Source: Nitrosovibrio sp. Nv4
GTDB lineage: Bacteria; Pseudomonadota; Gammaproteobacteria; Burkholderiales; SG8-39
DNA: 62,501 bases
Reading direction: 5' to 3'
Assembly: GCA_945906765.1 (NCBI GenBank)
Contig: CAMDRF010000004.1
Span: 1 to 62,501, forward strand
The translations under genes were made by a program, and so were the position numbers. Positions within the stretch are counted from its first letter, which is position 1. The number at the start of each line of letters is the position of its first letter. Shown here piece by piece: positions 54,255-60,909 of the stretch. The notes under the pieces are model-generated. The model saw nothing but the letters and a program-made list of their open reading frames with translations, had not been told where the DNA came from and did not search any database.

Positions 54255-54820
54255 TCGGGCGCCTTGCAGGCACGCTCATCGCCAAGCAACCGCCTCAAGT
54301 ACTGCTCGAGGTAGCAGGCGTCGGCTACGAGATCGACGTCCCGATGAGCACTTTCTACAACCTGCCCGCGACTGGCGAAGCGGTGACCCTGCACACGCAC
54401 CTCGTAGTGCGCGAAGACGCCCATGTGCTCTACGGATTTGCGACGCTCGAAGAGCGATCGGCATTTCGCAAACTGATCCGCATCTCGGGGGTCGGCGCGC
54501 GCACTGCGTTATCCGTTCTTTCCGGCCTCTCGGTCGCGGATCTCGCGCTGGCGGTGACGCTGCAGGATACGGCGCGGCTCACCAAGGTTCCCGGCATCGG
54601 CAAGAAGACGGCGGAGCGCCTGCTGCTGGAACTCAAGGGCAAGCTCTCCGACGCGCTGCCGGCAGGGGCGAAAACCGGCTCGGGCAATGATGTGCTGAAC
54701 GCGCTGCTGGGATTGGGCTACAGCGAGAAGGAAGCGCTCAATGCGGTTAAGGGTTTGCCCACGGGGTTGGCGGTGACCGAAGGCATACGGGCGGCGTTGA
54801 AGGCGCTGGCGAAAAGCTAG
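54251..54820 (+). CDS. ruvA: Holliday junction helicase RuvA
   Basis: [31 protein letters not shown]. Confidence 0.95.
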
Positions 54821-55938
54821 TCAGCGAATCGCCCTAAGTCGGGAGATTGCTTCCGCGATCTCCTTCTGCTTCGCCTCGATCAGGTCGAGAATTTCCTCCG
54901 GCGTGCGCGTGTCCTCTTCGACTTTGGCATTCGGATTTACGGCCTTCAGGTCGTAACCTTTCTGTTCGAGAACCGCGCGCTCGACGGTCCAGCTGCGCTC
55001 GCTCGATTCGCGCTTCGGCAGCCGCGCGAAGAAGTCCTCGAAGTGCGCGAGCGTGAGCGGGGACTTCTTTCCCATCTTGATGTCGGAGAGATCGTAATAC
55101 CAGATGCGCTCCGTCGGTCCGCCGCGGGTGAAGAAAAGGAGGTTCGTCTTCACGCCGGCGCCGGCGTTCACGAATGCGCCCGCCGGGCTTGAGGCTGTCG
55201 ATGACGTGCTGCAGGAACAGCACTTGTGTGGCGCCGGTCTTGTAGGGGAAGCGCGTTTGCGCGTCCTTGCCTTCCGTGCCGCCGAACGGCGGGTTGGTGA
55301 GCACCACGTCGTAGAGCGATGGCGCATCCTGAAACAGGCCACCGTATATTTCCCCGCCCGTCAGCGTATTGCCATGCCAGAGATGCGGCTCATCCACCCC
55401 ATGCAGGACGAGATTGGCGAGCGCGATCGGATAGATCAGGTTCTCCTTCTCCCGGCCGTAAAGCGTCCTGTGCTTGAGGGTATCCAGTTCGTCGGGTGTG
55501 ATGCTGTCGCCCAGGCGGCCGCGCATGTACTCGAAGGCCTGCGCGAGAAACCCGCCGGTGCCGCAGCCGGGGTCGTACACCGTCTCGCCCGCCTTCGGGT
55601 CGACGGCGCGCACCACCGCGCGGATGACTTCCCGGGGCGTGAAGAACTGCCCGCCGTCGTTGCCCTTCTCGCCCATCTTGAGCAGCAGTCCCTCGTAGAT
55701 AACGGAAGGGCGCGGCGAACGAAGGCGAGAATTCCGCGCTCACCGCCTCGGCGTGCTCCGCTTCGTACTGCTCGCGCTCGTCCAGAATCCGCAGAAACAG
55801 GATCCAGGTCAGCTCGGGCACGTACTGCATCGAGCCCGCGCAGTTGGAGCGGCGCATCACGTCGCAGATGCTCTTGATCGCGCCGTTCAGCGACTGCTGC
55901 GTCGCGTGGCGCTTGCCGTTCTGCGTCCCAGTTCTCAT
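54821..55938 (-). pseudogene. Type I restriction-modification methyltransferase HsdM, frameshifted
   Basis: Three overlapping frames: MRRSNCAGSMQYVPELTWILFLRILDEREQ; GQFFTPREVIRAVV..DPGCGTGGFLAQ..VVLTNPPFGG; FVNAGAGVKTNLLFFTRGGPTERIWYYDL. Confidence 0.88.
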
Positions 55939-57101
55939 TTGGCCGGCTCCAGTTCCGCGGCCAGGAGTTCGACGTAGCGCCGGTAGCTAAAGACGCGGCC
56001 ACGCCGCCGGTTCGTCAACTCACCGACGATGCCGATGCGTTCGAGATGCGCGAGCGTCTTGTTGACTGTGGCAGGTGTGAGCTTTGTCGCCTTGACCAGG
56101 GCGGCCGTAGTGGCGAGCGGTTGGCGCTGCAGGGCCTGGTGGACCGCAAGAGCCGATTCCGCCGCGCGCCCGAGGACCGCGATGCGATCGCGGTCCTTGT
56201 TGACGAGCGCCAGCAGCGCATGCGCTGTCGTCACGGCCTCGGTCGCGCTGACCTCGATGCCCTCGGCGAAGAAGTCGAGCCAGCGTTCCCAGTCTCCGCG
56301 CAGGCGCACCTCGTTGAGCAGCTCGTAATACAGCGCGCGATGCGTCTTGAAGAACAGGCTCGGATACAGCATGGGCTGGCTCAGCACGCCGTCGGCCACG
56401 AGCTGCATCACGATGAGCAGCCGTCCGATGCGCCCGTTGCCGTCGAGGAACGGGTGGATCGTCTCGAACTGGACATGCACCAGCGCCGCCTTGAGGAGCG
56501 GCGGCGTGGACTCCGGCTCATCATTGATGAAACGTTCCAGGCGCCCGAGGCATTCCGGCACGGCATCGGCGGGCGGCGGCACGAACACTGCGTTGCCAGG
56601 CCGCGTGCCCCCGATCCAGACCTGCGAGCGGCGCACCTCCCCCGGGGCCTTGCCGCGGCCGCGGGGGTGGGTGAGCAGCACCTTGTGCATGTCGCACAGG
56701 AGCCGCGCGCACAGCGGCAGGCCGCCCCGCAGCTTCTTCAGGCCGGTCTCCAAGGCCGCCACGCAGCGGCTCACCTCCCGAGCGTCCTCCACCGGCACGC
56801 CGGGCTGCTCGTCGATCTCGTAGAGCAGCAGATCGGCGATCGAGGACTGCGTGCCCTCGATCTGCGACGACAGCACCGCCTCCTTGCGCACGAAGCTGTA
56901 GAGCAGAAGCGCGGCGTTGGGCAGCATGCTCGTGACCGCGTTTAGCCGCCCGAGCGCCACCAGCGCGGCGTCGAAGCGCCGCCGCAGCGCAGGCGACCAC
57001 GCCACCACCGGCTCCGGCGGCAGCGGCGCGGGCACGAAGGCCTGGAAAGGCTCGCTTGCCGTCGTGACCTTCACGTAGCGGCCGGGGGAAGGGCGGTGCA
57101 C
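55935..57101 (-). CDS. Fic family protein with C-terminal winged-HTH-like region
   Basis: HPFLDGNGRIGRLL Fic core; N-terminal SSQIEG inhibitory-type motif; C-terminal TPATVNKTLAHLERIGIVGELTNRRRGRVFSY. Confidence 0.92.
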   Translation of the reverse strand: MHRPSPGRYVKVTTASEPFQAFVPAPLPPEPVVAWSPALRRRFDAALVALGRLNAVTSMLPNAALLLYSFVRKEAVLSSQIEGTQSSIADLLLYEIDEQPGVPVEDAREVSRCVAALETGLKKLRGGLPLCARLLCDMHKVLLTHPRGRGKAPGEVRRSQVWIGGTRPGNAVFVPPPADAVPECLGRLERFINDEPESTPPLLKAALVHVQFETIHPFLDGNGRIGRLLIVMQLVADGVLSQPMLYPSLFFKTHRALYYELLNEVRLRGDWERWLDFFAEGIEVSATEAVTTAHALLALVNKDRDRIAVLGRAAESALAVHQALQRQPLATTAALVKATKLTPATVNKTLAHLERIGIVGELTNRRRGRVFSYRRYVELLAAELEPAK

Positions 57102-57111
57102 GGTTCGGGCA

Positions 57112-57140
57112 ACCTGAAATAAGAATGGCCGTTATTTTAG
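57112..57140. repeat. Direct/inverted repeat copy A upstream of fic
   Basis: ACCTGAAATAAGAATGGCCGTTATTTTAG. Confidence 0.6.
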
Positions 57141-57199
57141 TTTAATAGCCAAAAGTAAATCAACGGCCGACCGTAATTTAGGTTCCCGCTACCCCGCCC

Positions 57200-57231
57200 T
57201 TATTTTCGTTTTCGGCCTAAAACGAAAATAA
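57200..57231. repeat. 13-bp-arm inverted repeat upstream of fic
   Basis: TTATTTTCGTTTT-CGGCCT-AAAACGAAAATAA, perfect arms. Confidence 0.85.
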
Positions 57232-57239
57232 TGGAATTC

Positions 57240-57262
57240 CTTGTTAGCGCGGCGCTAACAAG
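57240..57262. repeat. 23-bp perfect inverted repeat
   Basis: CTTGTTAGCGC-G-GCGCTAACAAG. Confidence 0.85.
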
Positions 57263-57282
57263 CTCCCGCCCCACGAAATATG

Positions 57283-57312
57283 GGTCAAGTATCGGTCAAG
57301 TGATCGGTCAAG
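57283..57312 (+). repeat. Three GGTCAAG direct repeats (11-12 bp spacing)
   Basis: GGTCAAG at 57283, 57294 and 57306. Confidence 0.8.
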
Positions 57313-57343
57313 CCGCCTCGTCAGCGCAGCAGGGCGATTCCGC

Positions 57344-57372
57344 ACCTGAAATAAGCCGGATCGCTATTTTAG
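57344..57372. repeat. Direct/inverted repeat copy B
   Basis: ACCTGAAATAAGCCGGATCGCTATTTTAG, same length as copy A. Confidence 0.6.
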
Positions 57373-57402
57373 GATCCGGGCGAAGACGCCCGGGCGAAAG
57401 CG

Positions 57403-57751
57403 CTAGTCCCGAAGCAGCGCCTTGAAGCCCGCCTGCTCGAAATGGTGGTCGTGGGCGAGGGCGTCCTTGATTCCCTGCTCTTCCATGATCAGAAAAAATG
57501 CACAGTCGGTCAGGCCCCATTCCTTGTCGCCTCGGTTTTCATACCGGTCGACGGCGCGACGGAAAAGGTCTCTCGTCTGAGGCACAACCGTAACGTTTGG
57601 ATTGCCTGCAATCGCCTCAGCGACCATCTCGGAGGTAACGATGTGGCATCGGAGCCAACTCTTTCGTTACGGTTTGGGCCTTCTGGTGAAGGTCGTCCTG
57701 CGGGTTGAGCGTCGCTTGCCAATACCCGGTGTCCGCGAAGACCGTCCGCAC
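57403..57751 (-). pseudogene. PIN-domain toxin, frameshifted
   Basis: VRTVFADTGYWQATLNPQDDLHQKA in one frame, then EMVAEAIAGNPNVTVVPQTRDLF...WGLTDCAFFLIMEEQGIKDALAHDHHFEQAGFKALLRD in another. Confidence 0.75.
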
Positions 57752-58268
57752 GGCGAATCGTATTTAGGCCCCTCGACGGCGGCCGGCCGAAGATCCGTAA
57801 CCTTACGGATGCTTCTCAGTTGCCCCGTGGCCCCCGAAAACTCTCCGACCCCGATGACGCGAAGCCGCCTCTCCGCGTGGTCCCGCAGGGCTTCCGTGAA
57901 CAGGACTTCCTGTTCTGGCGCAAAAACGCCGCGAACCTTGTGATCGTGTTTTCCAGTAGGTCAGCCGCCTGATCGAGCTCGCCTTCCAGCAAAGAGAGAT
58001 TCCCCGTGTCTTCCGGGATCACGCGCTTGAGCGGAACCCCCGTCGAGCCTTCCGTCAGCCCGTAGAACTTGATCGACAGGCTCGCCTCAAAACCCCTGGG
58101 CAAGCGCTCGCGATCCGGGTGCTGGGCGCGCCAAAGCGACTTCGCGGTTTCCACCAGAAGTGCCTTGTACGCCATCAATTCGGGCAGCACGTCGAGATCG
58201 AGGCCGTGATCGTCGAATCGCGGCCCCTCAAACCTCAGCGTCGTCAAATCGCGAGTCTTGTCATCCAT
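57751..58268 (-). pseudogene. Probable partner/antitoxin-like gene of the PIN toxin, frameshifted
   Basis: MDDKTRDLTTLRFEGPRFDDHGLDLDVLPELMAYKALLVETAKSLW...; coding-like frame switches near 57935 to QEVLFTEALRDHAERRLRVIGVGEFSGATGQL. Confidence 0.55.
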
Positions 58269-58420
58269 CCGGACCTCCTTGCCTAACAACTCTCAGTACG
58301 GGCGCGAGTGTAAGCCGAAGCGAGGCCTCTCAGCGACCAAAGGCCAGATATCAGCCGGCGCACGTACCCGCGTGTTGCGGAATCCAAACAACGCACGAGA
58401 ACTGATCCGGTTGGCGCACT

Positions 58421-58693
58421 TCAGACGCTCCCGGCAAAGGCGCGGCGGAGGTAGGCAGAGGGCAACTTCTCGACCAACTTAATCTGCTCGTCAGTCTTAC
58501 TGATCGCTTCTTGGATCAACCGCACCTGCTTGGCGAACTCGTGCTGCGCTTCGATTCCCGGCACTTCGACTGAGGCCACGGCTAGGCGCTTGAAAAGAAG
58601 CCGTTCGCGCACGGCGCCCCGCGTAAGTCCTTTAATGAAGTTTTCGCCGTAGAGGGAGCGCAACCAATAGTAGAACGTGCTCTTATTGATCAC
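58421..58693 (-). pseudogene. HsdS specificity-subunit C-terminal fragment
   Basis: FIKGLTRGAVRERLLFKRLAVASVEVPGIEAQHEFAKQVRLIQEAISKTDEQIKLVEKLPSAYLRRAFAG. Confidence 0.7.
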
Positions 58694-59795
58694 GCCCCAA
58701 ACATCCTTTCTTTCGTCTCACGCAGCACGTCGGCAGGCTTACCAACGGATTTCAGAGCGTCGAGGCCGCCGACTTTGGCGACTTCGGGGACTTCGAAGAC
58801 TTTGGGGTTTTCCAGGCCGTCGGTGCCGCTGCGGGCGAACTGGGAAGCGATGGCCTTCACTGTTGCGGCGGCGTTGGGGGGAATCGTTGAGAGCCAGGCG
58901 CCGTTTTTGTAGTTGAAGGCGTCGGCGCGGTCGGAGCGGGTGCGGGGGAGCATGCCGTAGCCGAGGTCGGCGAGCGCACGTACTTGAAGAACACGATGTT
59001 GCGCACGGCGGGCACGTCGACACCGGTGGTGAGCAGGTCGACGGTGGTGGCGACGAAGTGATGGCGTGACGCGGCGCGCAGGCCGGGCAGGAAGTCGCCG
59101 CCACCGCTCTCGGAGGTGCACTTGAAGGCGTAGGGTTCGGCGCGCGGCTTGCCGTTCTTCGTGCACCACTCGGCGTAGAGGTTGTTCATCGCCGCGGAGA
59201 CGGCGTCCGCGTGGCGGTCGCGGGCGCAGAAGATGATGCTCTTCTGCTCCGGCCCGCCGGTTTCCAGCAACCGGGCGAAGAGGTTCTTCGTCATTTCCGC
59301 GACACGCTCGGGCATGAGGAGCTTTTCCTCGATGTCCGGGGCGTCGTAGCGGTCTTTGGCCGCGTCCGGGTAGTAGCGCCGCGTCGCCTCGCCCCCTGAC
59401 TACCGGACAAGCAAGGGCTTAGCCGCAGGTGCATCGAGCGAGATGCCCTTTGCCTTCTCATACCGTGCACGCAGCGTCGCGGGTGACGAGAATTCCGCAA
59501 GTGGCCGGGGATTCGAGGTCAGTCCCGTTGTTGCATCAAACTCGACGAACAGGCGCCCATTCGAAGAAAAAATGAACGGCACGTTCATACGCCGCGCCGA
59601 TCCGTAACCCTTGGCCTGCTCCAGGCCGTGGCCGGGCGGCAGTCCTTCGGCCTTGGCTTCGATCAGCGCCGCGCCTTGCCGCTGACCACCTCGACCGTGC
59701 CTGCGGTTTCCTCGCGGCGAATGAGGTCCTCTGTCCACCCGCAGCCACGGATGGCCGGATCAATCAGCTTTGCCCGGGTATCGGACTCGTTGTAG
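58690..59795 (-). pseudogene. HsdR restriction subunit, internally deleted and frameshifted
   Basis: N-terminal [46 protein letters not shown] joined to C-terminal half (KSIIFCARDRHADAVSAAMNNLYAEW); helicase core missing. Confidence 0.85.
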
Positions 59796-59856
59796 GCCAG
59801 AACGTCCCCCTGTACGCATCATAACGGCAGGCCACAGGGCCGGTAAGATAGAGGGG

Positions 59857-60909
59857 ATGGCAGTTGAAACCGACCGTCTGATCTCCGCCAAGCCCTCCTC
59901 GGTGCAGGAGGAGCAGATCGAGCGTTCGCTGCGTCCGGCGACGCTCGCCGAATATGTCGGCCAGGACAAGATCCGCGAACAGCTCGACATCTACATCCAG
60001 GCGGCGCGTGGGCGCAGCGAAGCGCTGGATCACGTGCTTCTCTTCGGGCCGCCGGGTCTGGGCAAGACCACGCTCGCGCACATTCTTGCCAAGGAATTGG
60101 GCGTCAATCTGCGCTCGACCTCCGGGCCGGTGCTGGAGCGTCCCGGTGACTTGGCCGCGATCCTCACCAACCTCGAACCGAAGGACGTGCTGTTCATCGA
60201 CGAGATCCATCGCCTGTCGCCGGTCGTCGAGGAGATCCTCTACCCGGCGCTGGAGGACTACCAGATCGACATCATGATCGGCGAGGGCCCCGCGGCGCGC
60301 TCGATCAAGCTCGACCTGCCGCCCTTCACGCTGGTGGGCGCGACCACGCGCGCCGGCATGTTGACGAACCCCTTGCGCGATCGTTTCGGCATCGTCGCGC
60401 GGCTCGAGTTCTACAGCCAGGAAGATTTGACGACGATTGTGCGTCGTTCCTCCCAGCTTTTGAAAATAGAAATTGAAAATCAAGGAGCGAGCGAGATCGC
60501 GCGGCGTTCGCGCGGCACGCCGCGCATCGCGAACCGGCTGCTGCGGCGCGTGCGTGACTACGCGCAGGTCAAGGCTGACGGCAGGATCTCCAAGCCGGTG
60601 GCCGACGCCGCCCTGAAAATGCTCGACGTGGATGCGCTGGGTCTGGACCTCATGGACCGCAAACTCCTGCTTGCGGTGATCGAGAAATTCTCCGGTGGCC
60701 CGGTCGGGCTGGAGAATCTCGCGCACGTGATCGGGGAGGAAGCCGACACCATCGAAGACGTGTTGGAGCCTTATCTGATCCAGTGCGGCTACCTGCAGCG
60801 CACGTCGCGCGGGCGCATGGCGACGCTTACCGCTTACCGCCATTTCGGCATCACAGCCCCGGCGGGCGCGCAGGATCTTTTGTCGCAGCCTGACCCGAAC
60901 GCCACGTGA
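59857..60909 (+). CDS. ruvB: Holliday junction helicase RuvB
   Basis: [53 protein letters not shown]. Confidence 0.96.

What the first reader, a model, noticed from the sequence alone, without database searches (positions are those of the whole stretch)
57112..57372. Cluster of related palindromes and direct repeats upstream of fic
Seen: copy A ACCTGAAATAAG-N8-TTATTTTAG (57112-57140) and copy B ACCTGAAATAAG-N8-CTATTTTAG (57344-57372) are direct repeats about 230 bp apart, each also an imperfect inverted repeat. Between them lies TTATTTTCGTTTT-N6-AAAACGAAAATAA (57200-57231), sharing the TTATTTT half-site. Inference: operator array for the Fic winged-HTH, or ends of a small mobile segment.
Basis: partly seen in the sequence, partly recalled or inferred. 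Interest (0 to 1): 0.6.

Follow-up and report, generated by a model that had tools for sequence, protein, structure and literature searches.

The report
Self-regulation switch of a Fic toxin
The repeats just upstream of this gene are very probably the DNA sites to which the encoded toxin-like enzyme (a SoFic-type Fic anti-phage protein) binds to shut down its own gene; the same array, with exactly fixed spacing, precedes related genes across many bacterial phyla, and its letters change together with the protein's DNA-reading helix.

Summary
The repeats are real and at the stated coordinates. Copy A (57112-57140) is the promoter-proximal part of a three/four-half-site array on the minus strand: CTAAATTAC-N9-TTGATTTAC-N14-CTAAAATAA-N9-TTATTTCAG, directly upstream of an intact class II Fic-wHTH gene (PADLOC SoFic, E 8e-111). 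It overlaps the only sigma-70-like promoter (TTGATT-18-TAAAAT). The array recurs upstream of most homologous fic genes (60 of 77 loci with 5 or fewer mismatches in 18), with invariant spacings (half-sites 23 and 18 bp apart, 41-bp repeat). Homologs with other half-site letters keep the spacing, and those letters covary with the recognition helix (partial Mantel r 0.51, p 0.001) but not with the catalytic core once the helix is accounted for. Best reading: an autorepression operator of the Fic protein, working like CccR of Yersinia but with different geometry. Copy B is a lone core of the same specificity. The central palindrome has half-site TTATTTTCG, the type found before a different Fic at the same ruvA-ruvB hotspot in a congener, so it is probably a relic. 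The mobile-segment reading is not supported. Binding and repression are untested. The kind (autorepressing Fic-HTH) is known; the conserved array, helix code and orphan arrays appear undescribed in the papers searched.

The parts
55935..57101 (-). fic gene, 388 aa, class II Fic (SSQIEG inhibitory motif, HPFLDGNGRIGR) with C-terminal winged HTH; overlaps the following hsdM start by ATGA
   Evidence: non-synonymous distance well below synonymous against relatives
56037..56075 (-). codons of the predicted recognition helix, residues 343-355 (PATVNKTLAHLER)
   Evidence: AlphaFold2 model, helices 332-339 and 343-355, block pLDDT about 94-96; covaries with operator letters
57114..57140 (-). copy A core: CTAAAATAA-N9-TTATTTCAG (half-sites 57132-57140 and 57114-57122)
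   Evidence: conserved upstream of homologous fic genes
57155..57163 (-). upstream half-site TTGATTTAC, 14 bp from the copy A core, overlapping the -35 hexamer
   Evidence: F-N14-R spacing conserved in relatives
57173..57181 (-). fourth half-site CTAAATTAC, 9 bp from the previous one (41-bp repeat unit)
   Evidence: PWM hit 57152-57182, coordinates; tandem 41-bp copies also in L012, L044, L056, L057, L061
57134..57163 (-). predicted sigma-70 promoter TTGATT-18-TAAAAT lying under two of the half-sites
   Evidence: only promoter-like hit in 57050-57500
57344..57372 (-). copy B: lone core CTAAAATAG-N9-TTATTTCAG, 232 bp upstream of A, same specificity, no third half-site and no adjacent gene start
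57200..57231 (.). central palindrome TTATTTTCG-N14-CGAAAATAA: same geometry, CG-type half-sites as in the array of a different Fic (39% identical) at the same ruvA-ruvB site in congener G004
57240..57262 (.). perfect palindrome CTTGTTAGCGC-G-GCGCTAACAAG, function unknown, no T-tract
54821..55938 (-). hsdM remains (HsdM_N and N6_Mtase in different frames) directly after fic

Best explanation
Copy A and the adjacent half-sites are the operator through which the Fic protein represses its own transcription. Shown by sequence: each half-site is about 12 bp (TTATTTTAGGWT type); three are arranged F-N14-R-N9-F on the fic promoter, over the -35, the -10 and about the start site. Inferred: Fic dimers (SoFic-type proteins dimerise through the N-terminal domain) bind pairs of inverted half-sites 18 or 23 bp apart with the recognition helix 343-355 and block RNA polymerase, keeping a toxic AMP-transferase at a low level; a drop in Fic or in its DNA occupancy restores synthesis. 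Through the ATGA overlap the same operator would have governed the now broken hsdM. Copy B is most likely a spare or leftover core; the central palindrome is most likely the leftover operator of an earlier, different Fic at this insertion hotspot.
For: Array upstream of homologous fic genes in a wide range of phyla: 60 of 77 loci with 5 or fewer mismatches in the 18 core positions. 61 R..F pairs at spacing exactly 9 and 46 F..R pairs at exactly 14, against about 0.1 per spacing in mononucleotide shuffles. In the 3-7 kb fetched around each fic the core scores only in the stretch up to about 130 bp upstream of fic, with one weak exception. Order-wide scan of 399 genomes: of the 15 best sites, 10 precede a fic, 2 lie at fic remnants, 3 are orphans. 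Homologs with different letters keep the geometry: best of all tested spacings is the 41-bp period in 19 divergent loci and in 80 further loci from viral contigs (28 at score 24 or more, against a median of 1 over spacings). Operator distance follows recognition-helix distance with core distance removed: r 0.61, p 5e-4, N 39; 0.51, p 0.001, N 47 and 0.34, p 0.001, N 21, while helices 1-2 give 0.04 in the strict set and core given helix is -0.05 to -0.15. Sole promoter hit lies under the array. Precedent: CccR, a Fic-HTH, binds palindromes at its -35/-10; its promoter is 3.3-fold more active without it (PMC9755527).
Against: No binding, footprint or expression data for this protein. The Mantel tests do not model phylogeny, and the Fic sets are partly related. 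About a fifth of homologs have no clear array of this geometry; more distant Fics (L133-L148) seem to use other palindrome spacings. Geometry differs from the CccR footprint (N26). CbFic2 was reported to bind random DNA strongly (PMC10628234). The window's own first half-site (TTGATTTAC) is degenerate.
Confidence: 0.87

Rival explanations
1. All three elements (A, central, B) form one operator complex for this Fic, with A and B 232 bp apart joined by a DNA loop.
For: A and B have the same letters and both score as cores; 232 bp is close to 22 helical turns; some relatives carry two cores 41 or about 82 bp apart.
Against: No relative examined shows a second core 232 bp away; B lacks the flanking half-sites; the central palindrome has a C at a half-site position that is nearly always A in the aligned arrays of this group, and it matches the array of another Fic.
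Confidence: 0.15
2. The repeats are the ends of a small mobile segment.
For: Direct repeats about 230 bp apart; the region is an insertion hotspot (ruvA-ruvB).
Against: The array is a fixed 5' element of fic genes in unrelated sites and phyla; nothing recognisable lies between A and B; no empty site tied to A/B was seen.
Confidence: 0.03
3. The palindromes act in RNA (attenuator, terminator or leader structure).
For: Central and 57240-57262 palindromes fold well as RNA (z about -3.5).
Against: Copies A and B do not fold better than shuffles; no terminator found; conserved letters lie on the promoter, mostly upstream of the likely start site; covariation is with a protein helix.
Confidence: 0.03
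4. The array is the site of another, unlinked regulator that controls fic genes.
For: Binding by Fic itself is not shown.
Against: Half-site letters covary with the Fic recognition helix beyond overall relatedness; the array goes with fic across phyla, and the window's hsd/M32A/PIN neighbours are not shared by most loci; the own genome has no other core sites at 1 or fewer mismatches.
Confidence: 0.07

Closest known systems
CccR of Yersinia pseudotuberculosis (Fic-HTH toxin and autorepressor; PMC9755527)
   Same: Class II Fic with C-terminal HTH; inverted repeats near the -35 and -10 of its own promoter; shown there to bind and repress its own gene.
   Different: CccR footprint is two half-sites AGATAATCAT-N26-ATGATAATCT; here there are three or more half-sites with N14 and N9 spacing and a 41-bp repeat, conserved across phyla. 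CccR is a secreted effector; nothing here suggests secretion.
SoFic / EcSofic anti-phage Fic (PADLOC SoFic; PDB 3EQX, 3ZEC; EcSofic-AS1, PMC12249575)
   Same: Same domain architecture; PADLOC model hit at E 8e-111.
   Different: Only distantly similar to the solved SoFic proteins (best phmmer E 5e-33) and below the NCBIfam SoFic equivalog cut-off (146.5 against 550 bits). I found no operator described for SoFic in the papers read; PMC10628234 states DNA binding had not been shown for SoFic.
CbFic2 of Coxiella burnetii (PMC10628234)
   Same: Class II Fic with C-terminal HTH; DNA binding affects its activity (deAMPylating dimer on DNA, as proposed there).
   Different: Tested with random DNA; no own-promoter operator defined; acts on host histone H3.
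Type II toxin-antitoxin autoregulation
   Same: Toxin level set by binding of the module's own product to a palindromic operator.
   Different: No separate antitoxin recognised: toxin domain, inhibitory helix and DNA-binding domain are in one chain.

Membership tests
SoFic-type Fic proteins | Fic motif HPFx(D/E)GNGRxxR | tested here: met
   HPFLDGNGRIGR; Pfam Fic 2e-19, Fic_N 2e-22
SoFic-type Fic proteins | N-terminal inhibitory motif (S/T)xxxE(G/N), class II | tested here: met
   SSQIEG in the N-terminal domain; S78, S79, I81, E82, G83 invariant in alignment A2
SoFic-type Fic proteins | C-terminal winged HTH | tested here: met
   AlphaFold2 model and a weak HTH_24 hit below its cut-off
SoFic-type Fic proteins | PADLOC SoFic profile | tested here: met
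   E 8e-111, residues 19-381
NCBIfam SoFic equivalog NF046030 | score above curated cut-off 550 | tested here: not met
   146.5 bits
SoFic-type Fic proteins | AMP-transferase activity and anti-phage effect | not testable with these tools
   needs biochemistry and phage assays
Autorepressing Fic-HTH (CccR kind) | inverted-repeat sites over the -35/-10 of the own promoter | tested here: met
   array and predicted promoter overlap
Autorepressing Fic-HTH (CccR kind) | CccR operator geometry (10-bp half-sites, N26) | tested here: not met
   N14/N9 spacing instead
Autorepressing Fic-HTH (CccR kind) | own protein binds the sites and represses the gene | not testable with these tools
   only indirect: helix-operator covariation
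Mobile segment ends | repeats flank a unit present/absent in relatives | tested here: inconclusive
   no match to the A-B interval beyond array pieces in 101 relatives
Type I restriction operon regulator | fic or its array regularly linked to hsd genes | tested here: not met
   hsd-like neighbours by tblastn in only 7 of 80 fic loci; orphan arrays before hsd genes or remains in 3 genomes

The most novel reading that the evidence does not exclude
The operator is itself the safety catch of a one-protein toxin-antitoxin: bound to its array, the Fic dimer is held inactive (or deAMPylating, as proposed for CbFic2 on DNA) and also represses its gene; phage attack on host DNA or transcription frees the protein, switching on toxicity and expression together. 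Arrays left behind after fic loss then serve as ready promoters for other defence genes.
Probability: 0.1. Interest if true: 0.85.

Novelty: new variant of a known kind. Interest (0 to 1): 0.5.

Why it matters
Fic-HTH proteins are common anti-phage toxins whose control is poorly understood. A conserved operator with fixed geometry suggests that self-repression is a general property of this group, not a peculiarity of CccR, and gives a ready set of natural variants (same spacing, different letters, different recognition helix) from which the DNA-reading code can be tested directly. It also gives a DNA signature that marks fic genes and the places where they have been lost or replaced.

Tried and rejected
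my genome pattern had spacing 8 instead of 9 and found nothing; not evidence, repeated correctly. Rfam: no family in the window; no tRNA. RNA-structure reading of the repeats: copies A and B do not fold better than shuffles. R-M operon regulator as the general role: hsd neighbours are rare around these fic genes. Another Fic in the own genome as owner of the central palindrome: the nearest (contig C13) is only 34% identical to the G004 Fic and is cut at the contig edge, so no CG-type Fic was found, though the assembly is only about 95% complete. Literature search for an operator of SoFic or a helix-operator code found only CccR and CbFic2 as relevant; many subscription papers are not held. (a further paper search) was rejected for its syntax and not repeated.

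Full report
What is there. The minus strand carries an intact 388-aa fic gene (57101 to 55935). It has Fic_N and Fic domains, an inhibitory motif SSQIEG, the catalytic motif HPFLDGNGRIGR and a C-terminal winged HTH, and is a PADLOC SoFic (E 8e-111). It ends in an ATGA overlap with an hsdM that is broken into several frames; further hsd remnants lie at about 58.4-59.7 kb. Between fic and the remnants upstream is a 300-bp stretch with the repeats. All three elements of the finding are present at the stated coordinates, and the A/B pattern is not expected by chance (0 in 100 shuffles) nor found elsewhere in the own genome at 1 or fewer mismatches.

The repeats belong to a larger array. Reading toward fic: CTAAATTAC-N9-TTGATTTAC-N14-CTAAAATAA-N9-TTATTTCAG, then 12 bp and the GTG start. 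The only sigma-70-like promoter in the interval, TTGATT-18-TAAAAT, lies under the second and third of these half-sites.

The array is conserved with fic. Eighty homologous loci (51-88% identity) were fetched. Directly upstream of fic, a three-half-site array recurs: TTATTTTAGGAT...TTAANCTAAAATAANGnnnnnnCTTATTTTAGGTT. Spacings are exact: R..F pairs at N9 (61) and F..R pairs at N14 (46), against about 0.1 per spacing in shuffles (counts of pairs, not of loci). A position weight matrix finds cores almost only within about 130 bp upstream of fic (it was built from these sites, so the positions, not the scores, are the evidence). Several loci carry a second core 41 or about 82 bp further up.

Geometry is kept when the letters change. 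Scoring only self-similarity of three 12-mers at the fixed offsets, with no preference for letters, most loci beat all their shuffles. Examples: CAAAGAAAGGAT (L081, L086), TTATGTAAGCAT type (L055), TTAATTTCACTT (L017), AAAAGTCAATTT (L077), TTATTAAAGGAT (L131). Among 19 divergent loci, the 41-bp period (N14/N9 or its register-shifted equivalent N12/N11) is the best of all spacings tested; the same holds in 80 loci from viral contigs. Background DNA from the same loci reaches score 24 in 3 of 750 pieces, upstream regions in 55 of 75.

The letters follow the recognition helix. The model places HTH helices at 332-339 and 343-355. Proteins with (P/A)ATVNK at the start of the second helix mostly go with TTATTTTAG; P-T variants mostly go with ...AAAGGAT and similar sites. 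Partial Mantel tests with catalytic-core distance removed give r 0.61 (p 5e-4, N 39) and 0.51 (p 0.001, N 47) or 0.34 (p 0.001, N 21) for the helix, 0.04 for the preceding HTH region in the strict set, and nothing for the core once the helix is accounted for. These tests do not model phylogeny; I take them as strong but indirect support that the Fic protein itself reads the array.

Specificity across genomes. A sequence model of the array scanned over 399 genomes of the order gave 26 genomes with a match at E 0.01 or better. Of the 15 best sites, 10 lie at the 5' end of a fic, one precedes an internally deleted fic, one lies beside a fic N-terminal fragment at a contig end, and three are orphans. 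Further weak hits precede truncated fic remnants (L173, L178).

Copy B and the central palindrome. B is a single core with the same letters as A, without the outer half-sites and without a gene start of its own; none of the relatives examined has it. The central palindrome is F-N14-R with half-sites TTATTTTCG. In congener G004 a different Fic (39% identical) sits in the same ruvA-ruvB gap behind arrays of this CG type. In the aligned arrays of the window's own Fic group that position is almost always A. I therefore read the central palindrome as a relic of an earlier Fic operator and B as a detached spare. This step is inference.

The locus is a hotspot. In several congeners ruvA and ruvB touch; the window has a 5-kb defence insert, G004 has a Fic, and G011 has an array of a third letter type (TTATTAACG-N14-CTTTAATAA-N9-TTGTTAAAG) with no fic found. 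In another family, the same array position next to an acyl-CoA dehydrogenase gene is followed by fic in G617, by hsdR remains in G582 and by hsdMS in G702, with alignable DNA up to the third half-site; in G545 a close copy of the array precedes a full-length hsdRMS operon (gene names there by eye from the translations). Arrays can thus outlive their fic.

Mechanism. Known relatives make self-repression the obvious function: CccR binds inverted repeats at its own -35/-10 and represses itself about threefold (PMC9755527); CbFic2 changes activity on DNA (PMC10628234); EcSofic is a dimer whose C-terminal domain affects toxicity (PMC12249575). The separation of DNA-binding helices reported for CccR, about 70 Angstrom, corresponds to about 20 bp, between the 18- and 23-bp half-site distances here; this is a rough comparison only. 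Selection on fic is purifying (ratio of non-synonymous to synonymous distance about 0.1-0.16 against relatives), while the hsd genes have decayed.

Verdict. The operator interpretation is right for copy A, extended; the central palindrome probably belongs to another Fic; the mobile-segment idea is not supported. The kind of system is known (CccR); what appears undescribed in the papers I could search is the conserved array geometry across SoFic-type proteins, its covariation with the recognition helix, and orphan arrays in front of other defence genes.

Noticed in passing
window 54820-59857 (ruvA-ruvB gap) and L112, L116, L118, L120: The ruvA-ruvB gap is an insertion hotspot in this genus: genes touch in several congeners, but the gap holds a defence insert (window), a different Fic (G004), a toxin-antitoxin-like pair (G008), hsdR-like remains (G009) or an orphan Fic-type array (G011).
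   Followed up: partly
L193 6989-7041, L194 1146-1198, L195 7739-7791, L196 6055-6107: The same array position is followed by different defence genes: fic (G617), hsdR remains (G582), hsdMS (G702); in G545 a close copy precedes hsdRMS behind an AbiE-like pair. The genomes with hsd genes there have no close fic.
   Followed up: partly
L163 around 1501-1552 (G690): Complete orphan array between a cyclic-nucleotide-binding-like gene and the end of groEL, with no fic match in the genome.
   Followed up: partly
L133-L143, L146, L148, L153, L154: More distant Fic-HTH genes (37-47% identity) have palindromes of other spacings upstream, for example TTAAAG-N4-CTTTAA repeated; likely operators with a different geometry.
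   Followed up: no
half-site alignment: Half-sites look bipartite: several of the first seven letters vary between Fic groups, while A at position 8 and T at position 12 (often GGAT) stay nearly constant.
   Followed up: partly
window 57240-57262: Perfect 23-nt palindrome CTTGTTAGCGC-G-GCGCTAACAAG without a T-tract; owner unknown.
   Followed up: no
window 57283-57312: Three GGTCAAG repeats at 11-12 bp spacing.
   Followed up: no
window 57403-58289: Remains of a PADLOC PDC-M32A-like candidate defence gene (57816-58289, E 8e-24) and a PIN-like fragment (57403-57627, by eye only).
   Followed up: partly
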